Source: Ziziphus jujuba
Taxonomy: Eukaryota > Streptophyta > Magnoliopsida > Rosales > Rhamnaceae
NCBI RefSeq assembly: GCF_031755915.1
Contig: NC_083379.1
Location: 21,648,001-21,712,000 of the forward strand
Direction of reading: 5' to 3'
DNA: 64,000 bases
A program made the position numbers and the translations under genes. Positions 24,856-38,100 of the stretch are shown piece by piece (position 1 is the stretch's first letter; each line of letters opens with the position of its first letter). The notes below the pieces were generated by a model that made no database searches, had not been told where the DNA came from, and worked only from the letters and a program-made list of their open reading frames with translations.

Positions 24856-25620
24856 ACATTTTTTCCTAATTTGAAGAAGTTGGAATCTCTTGAGATAATT
24901 ATATCATAAATGTACGCGTTTAGCTATGTTATTCTCGCTATTCCCGGTTTTATTTAGTTGGGATTACCATTTATGATTGGGAGAATTATGTCACTAAATG
25001 AATGTTTCTCACTTATGTTACACTCATAATTTTCAAGTTGACTAAGCTAGGATCTCAATTTATTATTAGGATATTTATGTCACACATGTTCGCGTTATTC
25101 TGTGATGTACTTTGATGAAGTAATACTTGTACTTTAATGTACGTGTGTTTCCACCAATATTATTTACAATATTTTAAGTGGTTGGGATCTCTACAAAACA
25201 TCGGGACAAGTGCCACATTTTTTCCCAATTTGAAGAAATCGGGATCTCTTAGGACGATTTTGTCACAATTGTACTCATGTAGTTATGTTTTCCAACTTTT
25301 CTCAACTTGATTTAGTTAGTATCTTTATGTATGATCAGAAAAATTATGTCATAAATTAGCATTCATCACTTATGTTAGTCTCGTAATTCCTGAGTCAATC
25401 AAATTGGGATTTCCATGAATTATTGGGACATTTATATCACACGAGTACATGTTGTTCCTCATGTGCTTTCTTAACTTTTTTTATTAATTAACATCGAGAT
25501 CTATATTTATGATTAGGGCATTTATGTAACATTAGTACTTTGACGTACTTGTTTTCTACTAATGTTATTCCCACTATTTTAACTAATTGGGATCTCTACT
25601 TATCATCGAGACAATTGTCA
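24856..25620. repeat. Diverged tandem duplication, about 360-400-bp unit
   Basis: Unit 1 begins TTCACATTTTTTCC(T/C)AATTTG at 24856 and unit 2 begins GCCACATTTTTTCCCAATTTG at 25213. Both run through GGGATCTCTT or similar, a GTCAC-type phrase, TTAGTTGGGAT or TTAGTTAGTAT, CACTTATGTTA, and end TTGGGATCTCTAC (about 25184) or AATTGGGATCTCTAC (about 25585). The recurring phrase TTGGGATCTCTA..TTATTGGGACA continues in later parts of the block. No coding potential was identified. Confidence 0.75.
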
Positions 25621-25639
25621 CATATTTAATATTTTTTGT

Positions 25640-26960
25640 CATACAATTTAAGATTATATTAAAGGCTCATTAAAAAATAGTAAATGAATTTTGACAGTAC
25701 CAATGAAAGAAAATGATGGCATGGAATTTGATGAATGAAAACTTTCATTAACATTTAAATGAAAATTTTTACCATGTTAAATAAAAAAGAAAAAGGAGTA
25801 ACAATAACATTGAATTTGCAACTTTAGGTCTAACAAACTTTTCTAGAAGCTCCAACTTCATCTTCAACAACGTACAATTTGTATGGGAGCTTTTGAAAAA
25901 AAATAAAAATAAAATAACACTATCACAAAATAATGGGAAGAACATTTGAAAAACAAAGGGAGGAATACTCATTGCTTTCTTTTTTCTTTTTTTCTTTTTT
26001 TCCTTGAAATGGTTAATCCCAATCACCTATAGATCGTTTGCATCCTCAAATGATATATGGGAAGATGCTGCAACAATCCATGGATGGCACATTTCAAGAA
26101 AGCTTCCATATGCTCCAATGACGTTCATCACAATAGTTACCGAAAACAAACAGATGTAGGTTTGTGTAAATAAATCTTGCACTATCATGTTCCAAAGAGG
26201 TTTTAGAGCTTTTTCCTCTTTCTTTTTTTCTCTTTCCAAGTCTTTCAGCAATCTAAATCATATAACACACAGTTCGGGTCAAAAACTAGTGTTTTTTTAT
26301 ATTTTATTATGGGGTTTAAGTGTTTTCAATGATATAGGGTTTGGCTTTATGATTTGGGTTTTACTTTTTGAAAATGCATTAAAGAAAGAGAAAAAGAGAT
26401 GTAAATAGAGATCTTTAACTTCATAATTTTTGAATAAGATAATGTTTTTAATAAAAACTGGTGGTTTACGTTTATTTGACATAAACCCACCATATTTGGT
26501 AAAGATAAAAATTAAATGGGGGACTTAAAAGTGGATTGGATGGGACTTAAAGTTGATTAGATGGTTAATGAGGAAAATAATAAATGTTTTTGAATTTAGC
26601 ACTTAAAATGTAGGTAACTAAATGGATCGTTAATAAAATTTTTAGAGTGATAAAAAACCATGGATATTGTGTTTCTCGAACTTCATTTATTGGAATTCCC
26701 AATATAATGTCAGGATAATTAATTGGAAAATTATTGTGCAATCTAGTTATGTGATATTATGTTTCCTAAAGTCAAATGGTTGGGATTCTCGATATGATAT
26801 TGGGACATTTAATCGAGCGAGTAGAATAGATTCCATTTCTTTCAATATACACACACATCTTTCAACTACTTTCAAAAATTAAAAATTCACGATTATCTTG
26901 TAAGTAGTTGGGATCTCTATTTATTATTAGAACAATTATCACAAGTTTCATATTTATTGT
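25640..26960. repeat. Duplicated low-copy block, unit 1 (uninterrupted copy)
   Basis: This stretch is paralogous to 26961-27255 plus 33502-34283 plus 42123-42370. Matching landmarks are GAATGAAAACTTTCATTAACAT (25733 and 27043), AGGAATACTC (25961 and 27244), ATCCATGGATG (about 26076 and 33587), CTTAAA.GTGGATTG (26525 and 34068), GTGTTTC(T/C)C(G/A)AACT (26669 and 34190) and TTTCAATATACA (26842 and 42338). Unit 1 contains neither the Harbinger element nor gypsy element 1. Minus-strand pieces such as CHPWIVAASSHISFEDANDL (26089-26030) recur in diverged form in the other copies, so an unidentified dead gene may underlie the block. Confidence 0.75.
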
Positions 26961-27255
26961 CATGAAATTAAAGAAGATATTAAGAGTCATTAAATTAATT
27001 TAATTGTGTCAGTGAAAGAAAGGATGATATTGAATTTGATAAATGAAAACTTTCATTAACATTTAAATAAAATCTTTTACAAGGTAAAATAAAATAAAAA
27101 TTAGTAACATTGAATTTACAACTTTAGCTAACAAAATTTTCCTCAAGCTCCACCTTTAATAGCATATAAAATATATGGAACCTTGTGGAAAAAATCTTGC
27201 ACTAACCAAAAATAACAAGAAGAGCACTTCAAAAAGAACAAAAGGAATACTCTTG
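26961..27255. repeat. Duplicated low-copy block, unit 2, left part
   Basis: Second copy of the block at 25640-26960, interrupted at 27255 by the Harbinger element. It resumes at 33502, is interrupted again at 34283 by gypsy element 1, and resumes at 42123. Confidence 0.75.
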
Positions 27256-27268
27256 GGGTGTGTTTGGT
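27256..27268 (+). repeat. Left terminal inverted repeat of Harbinger element
   Basis: GGGTGTGTTTGGT, preceded by target-site TTG. Downstream, GGATTGG, GGACACAG and GATCA(G/T) motifs recur to about 27400 and may be transposase or Myb-protein binding sites. Confidence 0.9.
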
Positions 27269-27589
27269 TTGTTGGATTGGTCAGGATTGGATGGGACACA
27301 GTCCCAGTCTGCTGTTTGGTTGATCATTTTGAGCTCGGGACAGATGTAACCGAAACAGTAAATTAATCCCAAATGATCAGGACACAGCTGACCCGTCTCT
27401 CCCCCTACGTCATTTTTGTCCCAAACTCAAAAAGCCCTTGTTCTCTCGCTTATCGTTGCCTCGCGTGGAAGATCAAAGGAAAAATCACAGCTCGGTTGGT
27501 GAGTATCTCTATCTACATCTCTATATCTATTTTCTTCTCTGCATCTCTATCTGTTTTCTTCTCTATTTCTTCCTGTATTGTGACATTTC

Positions 27590-28175
27590 TTCGTATAGGC
27601 CATCTACTATAGTCGATCTGGAGAAAGGGCTTCCATTTGCAAGCAAAACCCCAAACTGTAAAGAACCCAGGTAAGTGTCATCTGTCTCTCCTCTCTGTGT
27701 TGTTGTCGTGGGATCTCGCCGATATATCTTTAAAAAAAAAAAAATTTGCTTAAAAATGTTACCCAAAAAATAGTTAGTTTTTTCTCTGCCTGTGGGAAAT
27801 TTTTTTTCCCTCAATTTGTGTTTTCTTTCGGGTTGGGAAAAGGCTTCCATCTCCTCTCTGTTTTATGTTGTCATGGGTGTGGATTTGAAACCCACTTTTG
27901 ATCTCTCACCGAGATATCTGCATATACAGATGTTTTATAACCATTTCCATTTTTGTTCTAAAAAAAACTTGCATTTTTGGTTCATGTTTTAAAACCCAAA
28001 AATCTAGTTTTTCCTTTCTTCTTTCTGGTGATGCGATAGACTAATTGCCTCTTGTTCCCAAACTCGTGTATAGGCCATCTTATAGTCGGATTCCATTTGC
28101 AAGCAAAACCCCAAATTGCAAAGAACCCAGGTAAGTTTCATCTGTCTCTCCTCTCTGTTTTGTTGTCGTGGGATC
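27590..28175 (+). promoter_or_regulatory. Duplicated putative 5' leader exon of the Harbinger genes
   Basis: Two copies of a block start GTATAGGCCATCT (27594 and 28070), run through TTCCATTTGCAAGCAAAACC and AAAGAACCCAG, and end at a strong donor CCCAG|GTAAGT (27671 and 28132). The conserved sequence continues into the presumed intron with CATCTGTCTCTCCTCTCTG and TTGTTGTCGTGGGATCT. The region upstream (27430-27590) is pyrimidine-rich. All three downstream start codons lie just after acceptor-like AG sites, so the block probably forms a noncoding first exon. Which copy is used, and where transcription starts, cannot be told from sequence. Confidence 0.55.
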
Positions 28176-28451
28176 TGTCTCTCCTCTCCTCTCTGTTTTG
28201 TTGTCGTGCAAAGAACCCCAAATTGTTAGTTTTTTCTCTGCATTTGTGAAATTTTTTTTCCCTCAATACAAATTATTGCACCCAAGATAGTCTGCAAATT
28301 TTACACACTGCCTGATGGGTTCCAAAACAAAAACCTTCACCTAAACACTTTCACTCTATATTTTCACAAAAAAAAATATACTGAATTTTTATGATAGGAC
28401 TGTGTTAAGCATTATTACTGATAGGACTTGAAAATGGTAAGGCTACACAGA

Positions 28452-28891
28452 TCAGGATGAACAGCAAAATAGTTTTCTTCTGCTCTGTGTTTCGTTGTTT
28501 AGATTTATTCCTGTACGCTTTAGTGGAGAAGCCCTTGCGAGTCTCTTTGCTGCATGGGGCAGTAACAACAAACCACACATTGCAGATATTAGTTTCCAAA
28601 TCATAGCAGAATTTGCCAAAATGCTTGCAACTATTTCTAAATGTATGATGTATATTTATCTCTATGGCACTTGTGTTGTGCATTTTATGAACAAAATATC
28701 CTATTTTTGAAATTCAAATGGTCATGGTGTATCTCTCATCTGTCTTGCTGCACAGTGGAACAATATGTTTCTTTATGATGAAGTATTAAAAATTCACCTA
28801 TTTCGTAGAAGAGCTCGTTAATATTTTCTGCTGTCTTTGCTGATGTTTCAATGAAGAACATTCCATTCTCTTGAGCATATTGCTCCCCCTC
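28452..28891 (-). pseudogene. Captured 3' end of a Rab5-type small GTPase gene (two exons)
   Basis: Minus-strand exon 28891-28798 has an acceptor TTGCAG before it and a donor GTGAAT after it. It encodes [10 protein letters not shown], then [21 protein letters not shown]. The ETSAK segment is the Rab G5 guanine-binding motif and the surrounding wording is that of Rab5/RABF GTPases. Exon 28549-28452 follows after a 248-bp intron ending CATGCAG. It completes the split codon and reads AKRLARASPLKRTGINLN, ending RRKLFCCSS and TGA. The vicinal cysteines fit a Rab prenylation site. The frame is open throughout (about 63 codons). No earlier exon (P loop, switch regions, NKxD) is present, so no active GTPase can be made. 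It lies inside the Harbinger element, opposite to the transposase, and the retained intron shows capture at the DNA level. Confidence 0.82.
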
Positions 28892-29110
28892 CTGCAATCA
28901 TTTACAATAAGTTAAAAAAATATTGAAAGTTTTTACAATGAAAGTTTTGGACTGATATAGCTATGCTTCAAACTACGTTAAAGATGTTATGCTACTTTCA
29001 TGCACACCGTGTAAAAATATTGAAATAATACGAGGCATTATGCTAAAATTAATTCCTTAAAATAATACAATTTTAAAAGTAAAAGAAAACGAGCTATAAA
29101 GGTGTGTTTC

Positions 29111-29393
29111 ATCGTTGACCACTGCAAATTACAAAAAAAAATATATTGACCATGATCATTAAATAAACTATAATATATATATATATTGATCATTACAGTC
29201 ATGTGTTCTTATAATTAAAAAATTCATCCTTGGAAAAAACATTTCTACTATCGTTGACCACTGCAAATTACAGAAAAAAATATATTGACCATGATCATTA
29301 AATAAACTATAATATATATATATATATTGATCATTACAGTCATGTATTCTTATAATTAAAAAATTCATCCTTGGAAAAAACATTTCTACTATC
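29111..29393. repeat. 139-bp near-perfect tandem duplication
   Basis: Two copies (from 29111 and 29250) begin ATCGTTGACCACTGCAAATT and run through ATATTGACCATGATCATTAA, a TA run, TTGATCATTACAGTCATGT and CATCCTTGGAAAAAACATTT. They differ at only a few bases. The duplication lies inside the Harbinger element between the captured Rab fragment and the transposase. Confidence 0.9.
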
Positions 29394-29739
29394 GTTTAAT
29401 CTATTTCTATATATGAAAATCAAAGTTTGGATGCTTTTTTTTTTTTCCTTTCTTTTTTGGTAACAAGTTGGATCCTTTTATTATTCACCAAAAAAAAAAA
29501 AAAGGTTGGATCCTTTTATGTGTTGGAAAAGTGACATGACATTATTGCCAATATTTACCAATTCTCAAATTGAGTTATTTATTTAGCATGCTGATAAATA
29601 GATGTATATTGGAATTGATTTGCGTTGTTTAGTCCAAAGTAGTTTATGTTTATCAAATTTAATATGCTATTTATTTATTTATTTTTCTTGAAGCATTTTT
29701 TTGTTTTTTATTTTATTATTTTATTTTTTTGTAGTACAT

Positions 29740-31096
29740 ATGGATCGAAGAAAAGTCGCTGCATTCCTTTTACTTCCAAATGATTCACAATTAAAGTCTT
29801 TTTGTACGGCTTTTATGTTACTTTTGCTTATGTATATGTACTGGGCATATATAAGGCGAAATGTTAGAGGTTATAGAAATCAATTACCTAGGAATGTAGA
29901 ATTGCGTATGTCTTTTCTAAATAGTCTGCTAGATAATGATGTTAATTGTATTAGTCAGCTTAGGATGGATAGGAGAACATTTGATACTTTATGTCAGTTA
30001 TTAGACGATGATGGATATGTTAAAAGTGATGGCATTGTTACATTGCAAGAGCAAGTGTGTATATTTCTGCACATAATTGCTCACCATACCAAGAATCGTA
30101 CAATTATCACTAGATTTTTTAGATCGGGAGAGACAATAAGTCGATATTTCAATTATGTGTTGCATGGAGTACTGCGCTTACATAAAATTCTGTTGAGCCC
30201 TCCAAAACCAATATCAGATAATTGTTTGGATGATAGATGGAAAGTATTTAAGGTACGTTTGTGGAATAGCTTCGTTATTAATATTATAGTTCAATTAGTT
30301 GGAACATTATCTGATGTTAGTAACTTTGTTAATGGCGTAGAATTGTTTGGGAGCTTTAGATGGAACTTACATTAAGGTGAATGTACCAGAAATCGATAAG
30401 CCAAGATATCGTACAAGAAAGGGTGAGATAGCCACAAATGTTTTAGGTGTATGTAATCCAAATATGGAATTTATATTTGTATTACCTGGTTAGGAAGGTT
30501 CCGCTTCAGATTCAAGAGTACTCCGTGATGCATTAAGTAGGCCAAATGGGTTAAGAGTACCAACTGGTAAGGCTAATTTTCAAAATTTAAATTGTAGTAA
30601 CCAACATTGCATACACTAATAGGAGATATGTTTTTGTTTTTTAGGTTGTTATTACTTAGTGGATGCTGGTTATACTAATGGTGAAGGATTTCTTCCACCA
30701 TATAAAGGAACAAGATATCATCTTTCTGAGTGGAGAGAGGGCTGTGCACCCATAAATCACGAAGAGTATTTCAACATGAAGCATGCATCTGCTAGGAATG
30801 TCATAGAAAGATGCTTTGGGGTTCTTAAAAAGCGGTGGGCAATTTTAAGAAGTCCATCTTTCTATCCTATTGCAACACAAATCAAGATCATTACCGCATG
30901 TTGCCTTATACATAATCTTATTAGAAGAGAAATGATAATTGATCCTGGGGAAGTTGAGTTTGATAGGAGTGAAGATGTTGCCATTAGTACTGACGATGAC
31001 ATTATAGGATCGATTTCTTCCTCTGACCAATGGACTAACTGGAGAGATGATTTAGCTAAGCAAATGTTTGCTGAGAGGAGATGTCATGGACATTAG
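29740..31096 (+). CDS. Harbinger DDE transposase (three exons, one nonsense codon)
   Basis: Model: 29740-30252, 30341-30566 and 30645-31096 with GT/AG introns of 88 and 78 bp, giving 396 codons. It belongs to the HARBI1/DDE_Tnp_4 family that cuts and pastes the element. A helix-turn-helix-like segment with [16 protein letters not shown] and [17 protein letters not shown] (about 115-160) precedes the catalytic core. The triad is present: Asp178 in [12 protein letters not shown], Asp253 in [10 protein letters not shown], and Glu301 in [17 protein letters not shown]. The C-terminus carries the usual acidic tail ending [14 protein letters not shown]. The only visible lesion is TAG at 30491-30493, where the family has Trp in [13 protein letters not shown]. 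As it stands the protein would end at codon 221, losing Asp253 and Glu301. The start is the Met before DRRKV, placed six bases after a TTTTTGTAG acceptor-like site. Confidence 0.88.
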
Positions 31097-31292
31097 TGGT
31101 CGCATGTTTTAATGCTCTTGTAGATGTTTTATTTTATACTGTTTGTTAAACATCTTGGATCATTTGTATGAAAACCAATTTATATTATATGCCATTGTTG
31201 TCATATGTGAATGATTTTTCCTTATTTTCTTGCTGTTATTTGCTTGCTGTTATTGTATTGTTGAAATCATAAAAATTTGTATTTTAATAGAA

Positions 31293-32253
31293 ATGAAAGT
31301 TGGAGGTAGCAGTCACAATATCCGAGGGATTGAATCTAGACGTACATGGAGCAAAGGGGAGGAAGATGCTTTGCTGCTTATTTTAGATGAGGTTGTAGCT
31401 AGTGGGCAGCGATGTGACACCGGATCATTCAAGCCTGGCACAATTACTATGATTGAGAGGCGATTGGCTGAGATATGTCCTAATTCGGGCTTGCGAGCAA
31501 ATCCACACATTGAGTCAAAGTTGAAAAAGTGGAAGAAACAATACGGTATAATATATGATATGCTAAACAAAAGTGGCTTCGGATGGAATGACTCTCTTAA
31601 ATGTGTGGACGTTGATAGTGACGAAGTTTGGAAAGCATATGTGCAGGTTTTGAAAATTTGGACATCAGTTTTCATCGAATTTTTTCACTTGATATATGAA
31701 GTTATGTTTTTCAATTGTTTACAATTAAAAGTTTGTTTTTTTATTTTAGAGTAACCCAAGTGCAAAGGCATGGAGAAGTAAACCGTTTCCGCTATATGAG
31801 AGGCTTGCTAGTATTTTTGGAAAGGATCGGGCAACAGGACATGGAGCACAAACTCCAATTGATATGGTCAATGATTTGAATTTGGAGAGTGGAAATGAAC
31901 AATTTAATGATGTATGTTCTCCAATGTCTGTGAATGAAATCCATAGTGAACCGTCTACCCGACCCAAATCAAGAGGTAAGAGAAAATCTGGAATGAAGGA
32001 TGATGACATTGTGAGCGGGTTTGGCAATGTAGCAGAGAAATTGTTTGATAAATTGGCTGCAAAGTTAGATAAATCGGAAGCCAATTATCCACAATACTTA
32101 GCTATGGAGCTAGACAGGTTAGGCTTCTCTGTTGATGACAATCTCGAAATCTCTAAGGCAATGAGATTGGATCCATCGAACGTTGAGGTTTTTAAGATTA
32201 TTAGAACGGATACGGGCAAGATTGAATTTGCTAGAAAATTTTTAAATTACTAG
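31293..32253 (+). CDS. Myb/SANT-like DNA-binding protein of the Harbinger element
   Basis: Two exons, 31293-31646 and 31750-32253, joined across a 103-bp GT/AG intron, give an intact 285-residue protein. Residues about 16-118 form the Myb/SANT-like domain common in plant Harbinger second proteins: RRTWSKGEEDALLLILDEV, then a basic segment KLKKWKKQYGIIYDML, then EVWKAYVQ at the splice junction. Residues about 118-140 (AWRSKPFPLYERLASIFGKD) are the usual extension. The middle is acidic and serine-rich with a basic patch near RPKSRGKRKSG, a possible nuclear signal. The C-terminal part is helical. In studied Harbinger systems this protein binds the element ends and is needed with the transposase. 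The ATG lies two bases after a TTTTAATAG acceptor-like site. Confidence 0.87.
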
Positions 32254-32534
32254 GTGTTGCTGTGTATCATATATTTAAGACTATGTATGAGGGGAACTAT
32301 GAACACTTGGATGTGAACTTTATGGACATATGTTGTATGGTCGTTTATGGACATGTGGTATGGTAATGGATGTTAGTATTTAATTATGTATGTAAAGACA
32401 CTTATATGAAGCATGTGTTATGTTTTAGTGTATTAATATGCACCTGATTGATTTAGTTAATTGTTATTTTGTCTAATTTTATTATTATCTTATCATATTA
32501 TGTTATAATTTATTATAATATGCAGGAACATTAA

Positions 32535-32852
32535 ATGGCAAGGAGAAGAGTTTATGTTGTGTTTGAAGGTAGACAACCAGGAATATATAATTCTTGGCCT
32601 GAATGTCATCAACAGGTGCAAGGATTTAAGGATAATTTATATCAAGCATATAATACAACTGAAGAAGCTGAAATAGCATATGCTGAGTATGTAGAACGAA
32701 TGATGAGGAATCTAAATGAGGCAAATCCAATACAACATATCACCGCACATACACGTGCCAACTTGAATAATGAGTGGCGTAATGGTTTTATAATCGGCTG
32801 TTTGTTTGGATTACTATCAATGGGTGTATTTACTTATTTGGCATATAAGTAG
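32535..32852 (+). CDS. RNase H1/viroplasmin-type hybrid-binding domain protein with membrane anchor
   Basis: Intact single-exon 105-residue protein. Residues 5-50 fit the RNase H1 N-terminal hybrid-binding domain, the fold shared with caulimoviral viroplasmin: VYVVFEGRQPGIY, then SWPECHQQVQGFKDN, YQAY and TTEEAEIAYAEY. The Trp, the GF pair and the TEEA helix are at the family positions. Residues 84-104 (GFIIGCLFGLLSMGVFTYLAY) form one membrane helix followed by a terminal Lys, so the protein would be a tail-anchored type with the nucleic-acid-binding domain facing the cytosol. No RNase H catalytic domain follows. It is in the same direction as the transposase and Myb genes and well inside both inverted repeats. 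The start lies nine bases after an acceptor-like TATGCAG. A function in transposition is unknown; binding of RNA or RNA-DNA hybrids at a membrane is only inference. Confidence 0.8.
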   Translation: MARRRVYVVFEGRQPGIYNSWPECHQQVQGFKDNLYQAYNTTEEAEIAYAEYVERMMRNLNEANPIQHITAHTRANLNNEWRNGFIIGCLFGLLSMGVFTYLAYK

Positions 32853-33329
32853 ATTATTGGTGTGAAATCAAATATATACATTTGTATGGAGACAAGTATG
32901 TGAAATTGTACTTATCAACAAGTTTTTAATTAAATATGATGTTAACTTTATTTATTTGTACATATGATTTAACATATTATAATATCATTTTAATTTGTTT
33001 TAAAAACCATATATTAACATAATTTGTGGTTGTAAAAAAAATTACAATTTAATTACAATGTAAAAACAAAATTACAATTACAAAATTTCATTACTTAACT
33101 TTATTTCTCATTAATTTTTATTTATAAAATATTATGTTATAATTTAATTTTCATTTAATTTTAAAATTACAAATTAATATAGTTTGTGGATGTAATAAAA
33201 ATGGTAAATGAAATATGTAAATAAACTTTATATCAATTTCCAATATTAATTAGGTACATTATTTTTTATTGTAATTATAAATAGAATTTTATAATTTTTC
33301 TTTTAAAAAAATTAAAAAATTTTAAAATA
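32853..33329. other. AT-rich Harbinger 3' noncoding region
   Basis: No gene. The phrase AAATTACAATT recurs between 33030 and 33080. It probably contains the 3' end of the transposon transcripts, but no clear polyadenylation element can be assigned. Confidence 0.4.
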
Positions 33330-33501
33330 GTCCAATCCAGTCTAATCCTGCACCAAACATGGAACAGCTAGTCCATCGTTCAGTCCGGATCTATACCAAA
33401 CATAGGACTGCACTACTATATCCTGTCCGATTCGATCGGATCCGAACCTATCCTGTCTGATCCAGTCCGATCCGAACCTGTCCTGCGTACCAAACGCACC
33501 C
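33330..33501 (-). repeat. Right terminal inverted repeat and subterminal motif cluster
   Basis: The last 13 bases (33489-33501) are the inverted repeat. Within the preceding 170 bp, ACCAAAC occurs at 33352, 33394 and 33489, and a CCGATCCGAACCT(A/G)TCCTG-like phrase occurs twice with shorter variants. Clustered subterminal repeats are typical binding sites for Harbinger transposition proteins. Confidence 0.8.
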
Positions 33502-34283
33502 TTGGGTTCCTTTTCCAAAGTACCTCATCTTAGTCATCAACAGCTCTTTCGCATCTTTAGGTTATGTATTTGAATATGCAGCAATGATCCATGGATGACA
33601 TACATATCAAAAAAGCTTCCAGATATTCCAACTGCTTTCATTGCAATAGATGCCAATAACAAACATCAAGAGCTTTGTGGAAAAAAATCTTGCATTATCA
33701 TGTAAACATCAAGAGGTTTTGAAGCTTTGTTCTTTTTCTTTTTCCCTTTCCTCGTTTCTCTATTGTCTGCTCCATCTTCACACACACAATTGAGGTCAAG
33801 AACCAGTTTTTTTTTTTTCCTTTGGTTCGAGTTTTTTCAAAGGTGTTTGAGTTTTAGTTTTTAAAAATGTATTAGAGAGAGAAGGTGAAAGAGATGTAGA
33901 TAGAGAACATTCACACTATTTTTGTATGAGATGAATAATTGAATGGTTATCTAGAAATGTAATAATATTTTCAGGTATGGTAATTTAATAGAAATTGATG
34001 GGTTCGGTTCATGTTATTTTGACATAAACCCACCATAGTTGGTAGGTATATGAATTAAATGGGGACTTAAAAGTGGATTGTATGGTTAAAGGATTAGAAA
34101 ATATAGTAAATGTTTTTGAACATGGTAGGCAATAGGTAGGTGAATTGATCTTTTATTGAATTTATGTTGTGGGAAAAAACTATGGACATTGTGTTTCCCA
34201 AACTCCATTTGTCGGGATTCTCGATATAATGATAGGACATTTAATGGGCAAATTATTACACTATTTGGTTATGAGATATCATG
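33502..34283. repeat. Duplicated low-copy block, unit 2, middle part
   Basis: Continuation of the block interrupted at 27255. It is paralogous to about 25972-26761, for example ATCCATGGATGACAT (33587) against ATCCATGGATGGCAC (26076). It ends with TCATG at 34279-34283, the target duplication of gypsy element 1. Confidence 0.75.
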
Positions 34284-35162
34284 TGATACGAACCTAGGAC
34301 GACCTCAACCCCTAACCAACCTATGGTTAGAAACCTTGGTATAATGTAGACGCCACAATAGGGGATGGAAAACCTATTGATAAGTTAAGCTAAAACAACC
34401 AATTCTCTAATGGTGTTTTAGGTGTTCTCAAAGAACAAAGAGATAATTAATCTCACAAGTATTTTCTTAATCAAATCAAAGTTGTATTCTTATTGATAAA
34501 TAAGCCTTTAAATAGGCTTTGAAAGAAACAAAATAAACCCTAAAAACCCTAGGAAAAACCGGCCACACACATAAAGAAACCTAGTTGGCCGCAACTATAC
34601 TTCCTTTCCTAATCTAAGTTTGATTAATTAATTCCTTTATATTAAATTAGGAATTAATTAATTTACAATAAAATAAAAACCTTCCTAAAGTTATTTGTCT
34701 AGAAAATAAATAAATAAAAATCCAAAAAGAAATAAAGTCAATCGCAAATTAGGTAACGAGTTGACTTTGACATCTAGGCAGAATTATGTCTTCAACCGAG
34801 CTAACTTATATCTGCCTGATGTCCGAGCTAACTTATGGCCTATCCGAGCTAACTGATGTCTGTCTGAACTAACTTGTGTCTGGCCGAGCTAACTAATGAC
34901 TGTCCGAGGCAAGGGTGTCCAATATAAAACTATGTATAAGTATCCGATGTATCAGCCTGCACCACCTGGATATTTAAAATAGGTCTTTTATCTTCAAGTA
35001 TGGACAAGCCCTTTTTGAGAATGAATTACTCTCTGGATAAAGGCAGCAAGGTTGTCCTTAAACCTCTTAGCTTGAGCCCTAGTGATCGGTCCAGACTTCA
35101 TCCGTATCAGATCAGTACCCCAGCGAGTTGTCGGTGGTGTGAGCTCGGGCGGGTTCGCATCA
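34284..35162 (-). repeat. 3' LTR of gypsy element 1 (879 bp)
   Basis: Shorter than its partner at 41067-42117. About 64 bp are missing after the outer GACGACCT, between two GACCT repeats, and about 125 bp are missing beside GTCCGAG near 34908. Its U3 start (35162 downward) encodes the C-terminal end of the polyprotein. The minus-strand TATA-like box is CTATTTAAAGG at about 34515. Confidence 0.93.
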
Positions 35163-38100
35163 TTCCCCTCCTCTTGAAAAGGATTTGTCCTCAAATTGAA
35201 GTCATCACCTGCAGTAAAAAGAGATAAATCAGCAACATTAAAGGTGGCACTAACACTATACTCACCAGGTAAATCAAGTTTGTAGGCATTGTCATTTATC
35301 CTCTCCAAAACTTGAAAAGGTCCATCGCCCCTCGGCATGAGTTTGGATTTCCTTTGTTTAGGAAACCTTTCTTTCCTTAAATGCAGCCACACCCAATATC
35401 CAGGTTCAAACACCATTGATTTTCGACCTTGATTATCCACCTTTGCATATTGCTCGGTCCTCCTCTCAATGTTTGCTCGTGTCTTCTCATGAATCTGCTT
35501 TACAAATTCAGCTTTTTGTTTTCCATCTAGATTAGCACGCTCACTTAAAGGTAAATGTGTTAAATCTAATGGAGTCAAAGAATTAAAACCATAAACAATT
35601 TCAAATGGAGTAAATTTAGTTGCTGAATATAAAGACCTATTATATGCAAATTCAACATGAGGCAAACATTCTTCCCAAGTTCTTAAATTTCTACTAATTA
35701 ATGCTCTTAACAATGCAGACAAGGTTCTATTTACTACTTCGGTTTGTCCATCAGTTTGTGGATGACAAGTAGTTGAAAATAAAAGCTTATTACCTAATTT
35801 AGCTCACAAAGTTTTCCAAAAATAGCTTAAGAACTTAGCATCCCTATCCAAAACAATAGTTGTTGGCATTCCATGCAATCTCACAATTTCCTTGAAAAAT
35901 AAATTAGCAATATTTGATGCATCATCAATTTTGTTATATGCAATAAAATGTGCCATCTTAGAAAACCTATCTACTACAACAAATATTGAATCCTTACCTG
36001 TCCTTGACCTAGGCAACCCAAGAATAAAATCCATAGACAAATCTACCCAAGGATAGGTAGGAATCGGCAAAGGCTTATACAATCCATGCGGCTTCGATGT
36101 TGATTTTGTTTTTCGGCACTTCAAACATCTTTCACAAATTCTCTCAACATCTCTCCTCATGTTAGGCCAATAAAAATGTTCTTGCAGCAAGGATAAAGTT
36201 TTTAAAACACCAAAATGACCCATTAAACCACCCCCATGTCCTTCCTGGACCAATAATTCCCTAATACTACAATTAGGCACACAAAGTTTGTTTTTCTTAA
36301 ACAAATATCCCTCAAATATGTAAAATTTATTAAATCCATGTTTCAAACAGGTTCTAAAAATTTCTCCAAAGTCACTATCATGCTCATAAAGTTCTTTCAA
36401 TTATTCAAATCCAAGCAATCTAGCATCTAAGGTAGAAAAGAGTACATACCTTCGGGATAATGCATCGGCAACCACATTTTCTTTACCTTTTTTGTAGCGT
36501 ATCACATAGGGAAAGGTTTCAATAAATTCAATCCACTTGGCATGCCATCGATTGAGCTTTCCTTGACCCTTGAGATGCTTCAAAGACTCATGATCCATAT
36601 GAATCACAAACTCCTTTGGCATGAGATAATGCTGCCACGTCTCCAAAGCTCTCACCAAAGTATACATTTCCTTGTCATAAGTCAGGTAGTTTAGGGCAGC
36701 TCCATTTAATTTTTCACTAAAGCAGGCTATGAGTCTTCCTTCTTGAATTAAGATAGCTCCAATACCTACACCCGAAGCATCACACTCAATTTCAAAAGTC
36801 TTAGAAAAATTTGGCAAAACTAATAAAGGTGCATTACACAATTTTTCTTTCAACAAATTAAAAGATTTTTCTTGTACTTCCCCCCATTTGAAGCCGACAT
36901 TCCTCTTGACAACTTCATTCAATGGTGCTGCTATGGTACTAAAATCCTTGACAAATCTTCTATAAAAGCTTGCCAAGCCATGAAAACTCCTCACTTGGGT
37001 GATAGAAGTAGGAACCGGCCACTCTTGAATTGCCTTCACCTTAGCTTGGTCAACTTTGATTCCTGTAGCACTTACTGCAAATCCTAGAAACACAAGCTCA
37101 TCTTTGCAAAATTCACATTTTTTAATGTTAGCAAACAATTTTTCCTTTCTAAGAACTTGCAAAAATTGCCTAAGTTGATCCACATGGTCATCCAAATTTC
37201 AGCTATATATTAGAATGACATCAAAATAAACAACCACAAATTTACCAATAAATGGACGCATTACATGATTCATGAGCCTCATGAAAGTACTAGGTGCATT
37301 GGATAATCCAAAAGGCATAACTAATCATTCATACAGCCCATATTTAGTTTTGAATGCAGTTTTCCATTCATCACCTTCTTTCATCCTAATTTGATGATAA
37401 CCACTCCTAAGATCAATTTTTGTAAACATGCAAGCACCATGCAACTCATCAAGCATATCATCTAATCTAGGAATGGGATGTCTATATTTAATGGTGATGT
37501 TATTTATAGCCCTACAATCAACACACATTCTCCAAGAACCATCCTTTTTAGGTATCAACAAAACAGGAACAGCACATGGACTTAAACTCTCACGAATGTA
37601 TCCTTTATCAAGCAAATCACTTACCTGTTTTTGCAGTTCCTTTGTTTCTTCTGGATTGCTTCTATAAGCTGGTCTATTTGGTATGGCAGCCCCTGGAACA
37701 AAGTCAATTTGATGTTCTATCCCTCGAATGGGTGGTAGTCCACTTGGAATCTCATTTGGGAAGACTCCAAATTCCTTCAAAAGAGAAATCTGAACTTGGC
37801 AATTTAAGTTCTTCAAAGTTAGTTTGATTATTAAAATAATTTTCTTTATAAATCATGAACAGCAAAGGTTTCTTACACTCAATAGCCTTATTAATATCCT
37901 CTAAACTCAAATAAAAATTGCTACTTAACCTTTTTTTTCCTTCTTTTTCTTTTTTTCCTTTGGATTGGTGCACATCTTCAGATTTCTCTTCCTTCTCCAA
38001 GCTCGCGGGTATGCCACTTCCTTTTCCCTCTCTTTTAGTTTTCCCTTGATCTTTCCACTCAATGTGAGTCTTAGAAATCTTACCTTGATCAGCAACCTCA

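What the first reader, a model, noticed from the sequence alone, without database searches (positions are those of the whole stretch)
32535..32852. A third Harbinger gene: hybrid-binding domain plus membrane anchor
Plant PIF/Harbinger elements are known for two proteins, a DDE transposase and a Myb/SANT-like protein. Here a third intact ORF lies on the same strand inside the same inverted repeats. It joins an RNase H1/viroplasmin-type hybrid-binding domain (residues 5-50) to a single C-terminal membrane helix (84-104) with no RNase H catalytic domain. An RNA or RNA-DNA-hybrid binder tethered to a membrane is an unexpected partner for a cut-and-paste transposon. I know of no description of such a gene as part of a Harbinger system. 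It might act on R-loops, on transposon RNA, or at the nuclear envelope or ER.
Basis: partly seen in the sequence, partly recalled or inferred. Interest (0 to 1): 0.93.

Follow-up and report, generated by a model that had tools for sequence, protein, structure and literature searches.

The report
Third gene in a plant Harbinger transposon
A family of plant jumping genes carries, besides its two usual genes, a conserved third one for a small protein that looks able to grip double-stranded RNA or RNA-DNA hybrids while anchored in a membrane, which suggests these transposons may do something with RNA at membranes as well as cutting and pasting DNA.

Summary
The 105-codon ORF at 32535-32852 lies inside a 6.2-kb PIF/Harbinger element (27256-33501; TSD TTG; paralogous empty site), after the transposase and Myb/SANT genes on the same strand. 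It has a Pfam RNase H1 N-terminal/Cauli_VI domain (E 2.5e-16) and a C-terminal hydrophobic segment. It is not a chance frame: 126 of 150 listed Myb matches in this genome have it downstream on the same strand (median 1.2 kb; shift controls 0-1), and between subfamilies ML omega is 0.22-0.38. Constraint is weaker than on the transposase and Myb exons. Relatives 52-56% identical from unnamed public records keep both parts. Copies over 99.5% identical at three loci carry it. Against a need in cis, copies at three other loci share a deletion that takes ORF3, yet also multiplied. The lysine pair of human RNase H1's domain is Q-A/S here, so hybrid specificity is doubtful. Best reading: an accessory, tail-anchored duplex-binding protein acting on element RNA at a membrane, perhaps against silencing. 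The mechanism is inferred, not shown. Ten literature searches listed no description of it.

The parts
27256..33501 (+). PIF/Harbinger element, 6246 bp, TIR GGGTGTGTTTGGT... / ...ACCAAACGCACCC
   Evidence: TIR search; paralogous empty site
27253..27255 (.). target-site duplication TTG, left
33502..33504 (.). target-site duplication TTG, right
29740..31096 (+). DDE transposase gene, apparently multi-exon; ORF 30776-31096 hits DDE_Tnp_4 (E 8.9e-9), ORF 29740-30375 has no Pfam hit; in-frame TAG at 30491-30493 (my reading)
31293..32253 (+). Myb/SANT-like gene, two inferred exons (31293-31646, 31750-32253); Myb_DNA-bind_3 E 1.7e-10 on the first
   Evidence: exon limits inferred from the sequence
32392..32525 (+). 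possible intron between the Myb gene and ORF3; TGCAG 9 nt before the ATG is present in 18 of 21 aligned copies; the donor is a guess
   Evidence: alignment; no transcript evidence
32535..32852 (+). ORF3: 105 aa, hybrid-binding-type domain (6-46) + C-terminal hydrophobic segment (about 84-104)
25577..26410 (+). paralogous flank without the element (empty site), 68% identical across the junction

Best explanation
ORF3 is a genuine third gene of this PIF/Harbinger lineage. It encodes a small tail-anchored protein: a duplex-binding RNase H1/caulimovirus-type domain facing the cytosol (or nucleoplasm), held by a C-terminal helix in a membrane, most likely ER or nuclear envelope. The most likely job is on the element's RNA, not on the cut-and-paste reaction: it holds duplex RNA made from the element, such as read-through or antisense transcripts, at the membrane and so shields it from, or competes with, the host's small-RNA silencing, raising transposase output for all copies in trans. 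Shown: the gene, its place, its recurrence, its domain, its constraint. Inferred: the membrane, the binding, the anti-silencing effect. About 0.9 that it is a selected third gene; about 0.35-0.4 for the RNA/anti-silencing mechanism.
For: 126 of 150 Myb matches (within 8 kb) and 125 of 150 DDE matches (within 9 kb) have ORF3 downstream on the same strand (medians 1208 and 1730 bp, 10-90% ranges 1169-1247 and 1693-1777); ORF3 shifted by +100, -100 or +500 kb gives 1, 0, 0 (Myb matches). Omega 0.22-0.38 in the three pairs of W, L049, L050 (p 1.4e-4 to 0.022). Internal-branch N/S over neutral 0.68, binding domain 0.48; terminal 1.27. ORF3 is 85-87% identical between subfamilies, the 3' flank 69-78% and the Myb intron 65-69% (ungapped). 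The 24 members of A3 all match Cauli_VI, among them proteins 52-56% identical to the window's. Model: strand-strand-helix-strand-helix then a long helix, pLDDT 66.6. The motif is said to bind duplex RNA, and CaMV P6, which carries it, suppresses silencing (PMC7102451, PMC5670102, passages). In-trans action fits the ORF3-deleted copies that multiplied.
Against: No binding, localisation, expression or silencing data. In PMC5670102 the P6 residues named for suppression are 80-110 and the passages seen do not tie them to this domain, so the P6 parallel is weak. Constraint on ORF3 is weaker than on both DDE exons and Myb exon 1. The spacer before ORF3 is 76-81% and the right end of the element 84% identical, so ORF3's DNA identity alone is not exceptional. 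The helix shows no dN/dS constraint (1.06); kept hydrophobicity is only modestly significant (13, 21, 49 and 53 of 1000 neutral simulations reach it for P0003, P0004, P0001, L049, but 259 and 274 for L050 and P0005). ORF3-less copies have transposed.
Confidence: 0.42

Rival explanations
1. Hybrid binder in transposition: ORF3 binds R-loops or RNA-DNA hybrids at the element and tethers the donor DNA or transposase to the nuclear envelope.
For: Domain is the RNase H1 hybrid-binding type; the tryptophan aligned with human W43 (W21) is invariant in A1 and A3, though the truncated P0002 has Q there.
Against: The pair aligned with human K59/K60, mutated together with W43 in a triple mutant of that domain (PMC8677849, passages), is Q37-A38 here and Q-S in P0003-P0005. 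Mobilisation of the superfamily is described as requiring two element proteins, ORF1 and transposase (PMC2836001, abstract start in the listings). Copies lacking ORF3 moved.
Confidence: 0.15
2. Translation helper: ORF3 acts like the caulimovirus transactivator, which carries the same domain, and helps ribosomes use the element's RNA, perhaps a dicistronic Myb-ORF3 message.
For: ORF3 follows the Myb gene at a near-constant distance with TGCAG 9 nt upstream of its ATG in 18 of 21 copies aligned; P6 drives reinitiation (PMC5670102, passages).
Against: No transcript evidence; the passages seen do not say that this domain is the part of P6 responsible; a membrane anchor is not part of that picture.
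Confidence: 0.1
3. Captured passenger: a fragment of a host RNase H1 gene or viral gene picked up once and carried along without use to the element.
For: Constraint weaker than for transposase and Myb exon 1; dN/dS about 1.1 among the closest pairs; ORF3-deleted copies multiplied.
Against: Omega 0.22-0.38 between subfamilies; domain and hydrophobic helix kept in relatives 52-56% identical; conserved place in 126 of 150.
Confidence: 0.12
4. Interaction module: the domain no longer binds nucleic acid but a protein partner (transposase, Myb protein or a host factor) and recruits or sequesters it at a membrane, regulating copy number.
For: Loss of the lysine pair with the tryptophan kept; no direct evidence.
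Against: No partner known; nothing tested.
Confidence: 0.15

Closest known systems
PIF/Harbinger elements of plants, MtPH-A6 lineage of Medicago (PMC2213677, passages)
   Same: Transposase with introns followed by a Myb-type orf1 (that order is given for A6), TIRs, 3-bp TSD
   Different: Only TPase and orf1 appear in the passages; the terms third, additional ORF, ORF3 and other ORF do not occur in the main text. Its sequences were not compared here
RNase H1 hybrid-binding domain (1qhk yeast, 3bsu human; Pfam PF01693)
   Same: About 41 residues align, tryptophan kept
   Different: No catalytic RNase H domain; lysine pair replaced by Q-A/S; C-terminal hydrophobic helix added
Caulimovirus P6/TAV (viroplasmin)
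   Same: Carries the same Pfam domain (PMC7102451, passages)
   Different: A viral multifunctional protein, not part of a DNA transposon; its sequence was not compared here
Captured Cauli_VI gene (capE) in a fungal Helitron of Pleurotus (PMC4289320, passages)
   Same: A PF01693 domain inside a DNA transposon
   Different: Reported as a captured gene in the largest copy of one Helitron subfamily of a fungus; here found in many copies and in several subfamilies, at a fixed place
Anti-silencing proteins of plant transposons such as VANC of VANDAL elements (recalled, no call)
   Same: An accessory gene that favours the element's own expression is the mechanism proposed here
   Different: Recalled as a DNA-binding protein acting on methylation; no comparison was made

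Membership tests
PIF/Harbinger transposon (the element) | DDE transposase of the Harbinger type | tested here: met
   DDE_Tnp_4 E 8.9e-9 on ORF 30776-31096; the first exon ORF has no Pfam hit
PIF/Harbinger transposon (the element) | Myb/SANT-like DNA-binding protein | tested here: met
   Myb_DNA-bind_3 E 1.7e-10
PIF/Harbinger transposon (the element) | TIRs and a 3-bp TSD, TWA according to PMC4482050 | tested here: met
   7 of 21 copies show both ends and an identical 3-bp TSD (TTG, TAA, TAA, TAA, ACA, TTA, TAA), plus L050 TAG. Five of these eight are TWA, three are not
RNase H1 N-terminal / Cauli_VI domain (PF01693) | Profile match above Pfam cut-off | tested here: met
   60.1 bits against 21; 24 of 24 members of A3 match at E 0.01 or better
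RNase H1 hybrid-binding domain | W43, K59, K60 of the human domain | tested here: not met
   W kept (W21); K59/K60 align with Q37/A38
RNase H1 hybrid-binding domain | Binds RNA-DNA hybrid or dsRNA | not testable with these tools
   needs protein
RNase H1 enzyme | Catalytic RNase H domain | tested here: not met
   No such domain; the protein ends after the helix. The NCBIfam ribonuclease H model matches only over its first 65 of 211 positions, 66 bits against a cut-off of 320
Tail-anchored membrane protein | Single hydrophobic helix at the C-terminus, no signal peptide | tested here: inconclusive
   Hydropathy peak at 85-103; 46 of 48 sequences have a 19-residue window of 1.6 or more. No membrane predictor or localisation; signal peptide not tested

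The most novel reading that the evidence does not exclude
A lineage of plant PIF/Harbinger transposons encodes its own membrane-anchored duplex-RNA-binding suppressor of RNA silencing, sharing its binding domain with the caulimovirus silencing suppressor/transactivator P6; cut-and-paste DNA transposons thus carry a third, RNA-directed function at the ER.
Probability: 0.28. Interest if true: 0.88.

Novelty: new variant of a known kind. Interest (0 to 1): 0.72.

Why it matters
PIF/Harbinger is described as mostly a two-protein system (PMC4482050, passages; PMC2836001, abstract start in listings). A conserved third gene with an RNA-type binding domain and a membrane anchor would mean that some of these DNA transposons have a function outside the DNA reaction, probably towards the host. 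It gives a testable handle on how DNA transposons stay active under silencing, and the natural ORF3-deleted copies in the same genome are a ready-made comparison.

Tried and rejected
Rejected: chance frame. A fused Myb-ORF3 protein: in W, L049 and L050 an in-frame stop directly precedes the ATG, but L018, L020 and L026 have TCA there, so a fusion is not excluded for those. An extended direct repeat around ORF3 as the cause of the deletion: the blastn pieces overlapped, but reading the junction of L051 did not support it. A splice donor at the Myb stop codon: not kept in L049/L050.

Led nowhere: the whole-genome Pfam search for PF01693 did not complete, so the host's own RNase H1 genes and unrelated PF01693 genes were not counted. 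Codon models in iqtree2 timed out; pairwise ML and parsimony counts were used instead. First structure model poor (pLDDT 61.1); the second better but modest. In one search Myb exon 2 was translated in a wrong frame; corrected from then on. The third protein search was not used.

Full report
What is there. At 27256-33501 is a PIF/Harbinger element with matching ends GGGTGTGTTTGGT / ACCAAACGCACCC and TTG on both sides. The host sequence around it is duplicated nearby, and the copy at 25577-26410 runs across the insertion point (68% identity): a clean insertion. Inside, on one strand, are a DDE transposase gene (DDE_Tnp_4 E 8.9e-9 on its last ORF), a Myb/SANT-like gene (E 1.7e-10) and, last, the 105-aa ORF3. 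The transposase of this copy has an in-frame TAG at 30491-30493 (my reading).

ORF3. Pfam finds Cauli_VI (RNase H1 N-terminal domain) at residues 6-46, E 2.5e-16, and nothing else up to E 1. In PDB the best match is the yeast RNase HI N-terminal domain 1qhk, E 5e-8, then human RNase H1. A model from 24 sequences has mean pLDDT 66.6 and the order strand-strand-helix-strand-helix, followed by a helix 70-104; fold comparison was switched off. The best 19-residue hydropathy window starts at 85 with mean 2.05; 13 of 5000 shuffles reach it; 46 of 48 sequences (43 genome copies, 5 outside proteins) have a window of 1.6 or more, one of the two exceptions being the truncated P0002. The tryptophan aligned with human W43 is invariant in A1 and A3 (P0002, in A2, has Q). 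A1 held the window, P0001 and 25 of the 40 loci L009-L048; A3 the window, four outside proteins and 19 of those loci; I chose them for spread, mostly stop-free rows. The pair aligned with K59/K60, mutated together with W43 in a triple mutant of the human domain (PMC8677849, passages), is Q37-A38 here and Q-S in P0003-P0005. A change in binding preference is therefore likely (inference).

It belongs to the element. A search of the genome listed 150 ORF3 matches (381 candidates, 150 scored), 150 Myb matches (315 candidates) and 150 DDE matches (385 candidates); all three lists are capped. Of 150 Myb matches 126 have ORF3 downstream on the same strand (median 1208 bp, 10-90% range 1169-1247); of 150 DDE matches 125 (median 1730 bp); shifting ORF3 by +100, -100 and +500 kb gives 1, 0 and 0 Myb matches with ORF3. 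Of 150 ORF3 matches 140 have Myb or DDE upstream on the same strand. Of the 20 loci L009-L028, which were fetched because they match ORF3, 18 have transposase pieces and 19 Myb pieces; L025 has neither. Of the 24 Myb matches without ORF3 I fetched 6: two do have ORF3, absent from the capped list (L053, in two frames; L054); three carry a deletion of ORF3 (L051, L052, L055); one, L056, shows neither Myb exon 2 nor ORF3 in the 3 kb fetched. The other 18 were not looked at. Both ends with an identical 3-bp duplication were found in 7 of 21 copies, and in L050 but not L049; in the rest an end was mutated, missing or outside the slice, or the flanks did not match. Copies L049, L057 and L058, at three loci, are 99.5-99.7% identical over 6.1-6.7 kb with all three genes, and have different right flanks: recent transposition of three-gene elements.

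Selection. Pairwise ML between subfamily representatives W, L049 and L050 gives omega 0.27, 0.22 and 0.38 for ORF3 (p 4.5e-4, 1.4e-4, 0.022), against 0.11-0.28 for the two DDE exons, 0.13-0.23 for Myb exon 1 and 0.32-0.46 for Myb exon 2; the three pairs with L018 gave ORF3 0.23-0.36. Nei-Gojobori over 36 stop-free sequences of 41 gives dN/dS 1.1 for the closest pairs (87 pairs), then 0.61 (122), 0.55 (417) and 0.40 (4) as dS rises. On a tree of 36 distinct stop-free sequences (of 43 rows) the N/S ratio relative to neutral is 0.68 on internal and 1.27 on terminal branches; by part, internal: binding domain 0.48, linker 0.74, helix 1.06. Internal values for the other exons, from 8-15 sequences each, are 0.26 (Myb exon 1), 0.60 (Myb exon 2), 0.46 and 0.36 (DDE). 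Binomial p is 0.025 for the domain and 0.038 for the whole; internal versus terminal 0.033. Constraint is thus real but modest, weaker than on transposase and Myb exon 1, and concentrated in the binding domain. The helix drifts in sequence; its hydropathy is reached by 13, 21, 49 and 53 of 1000 neutral simulations for P0003, P0004, P0001 and L049, but by 259 and 274 for L050 and P0005. ORF3 is 85-87% identical between the three representatives (ungapped); the Myb intron is 65-69%, the 3' flank 69-78%, the spacer before ORF3 76-81%, the right end of the element 84%.

Beyond this genome. Two searches of 5.8 billion proteins found five relatives: P0001 (79%), P0003 (56%), P0004 (53%), P0005 (52%) and the truncated P0002 (76%; identities). 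The four longer ones keep domain and hydrophobic helix. Their organisms are not given; the best listed match of P0004 in this genome is 56%, so it is probably from another species.

Natural ORF3-minus copies. L051, L052 and L055 match L049 on either side of the same gap of about 0.5 kb, which holds ORF3 and the splice-acceptor-like site before it (junction read in L051). They lie on three contigs with different flanks; L051 is 98.4% identical to L052 and 99.6% to L055 over the 1.7 kb compared. Their last DDE exon and Myb exon 1 have no stops; the rest of these copies was not examined. So ORF3 is not needed in cis, and whether it is needed in trans is unknown.

How it may work. The gene is accessory. 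Its domain type is said to bind duplex RNA (PMC7102451, passages, citing Cerritelli 1998, which is not held). Caulimovirus P6 carries it and suppresses silencing and drives reinitiation (PMC5670102, passages), although the passages seen do not tie either activity to this domain. A membrane-held duplex binder acting in trans on element RNA, against silencing, is the reading I find most likely (0.35-0.4); hybrid binding in transposition, a translation role, a protein-interaction module or a passenger are the rivals.

Novelty. PIF/Harbinger elements are described mostly with two ORFs (PMC4482050, passages; PMC2213677, passages). Searches had other aims; only 20 of 860, 23, 504 and 481 papers were listed; Repbase and subscription papers were not searched. 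A Cauli_VI gene captured by a fungal Helitron is known (PMC4289320, passages). I file it as a new variant of a known kind.

Noticed in passing
L051, L052, L055: Harbinger copies at three loci share a deletion that takes ORF3 but neither the Myb gene nor the last DDE exon; a natural comparison for ORF3 function.
   Followed up: partly
window 32392-32534; same place in other copies: TGCAG 9 nt before the ORF3 ATG in 18 of 21 aligned copies (exceptions L039, L045, L046), suggesting a 5'-UTR intron or a joint Myb-ORF3 transcript.
   Followed up: partly
window 25577-26813 against 26898-27255 and 33506-34284: Host sequence on both sides of the insertion is duplicated nearby (68% across the junction; 70-83% in several ungapped blocks).
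   Followed up: partly
window 34994-36667, - strand: ORFs that look like remnants of a Ty3/gypsy-type polyprotein right of the element (my reading, not searched).
   Followed up: no
G000:C1:21714130-21714438, about 2 kb beyond the window end: A decayed DDE match (60%, three stops) of an older Harbinger relative.
   Followed up: no
L020 2395-7923: An element with both ends and TSD ACA in which no DDE match was found, but the 3' part of the Myb gene and ORF3 remain.
   Followed up: no
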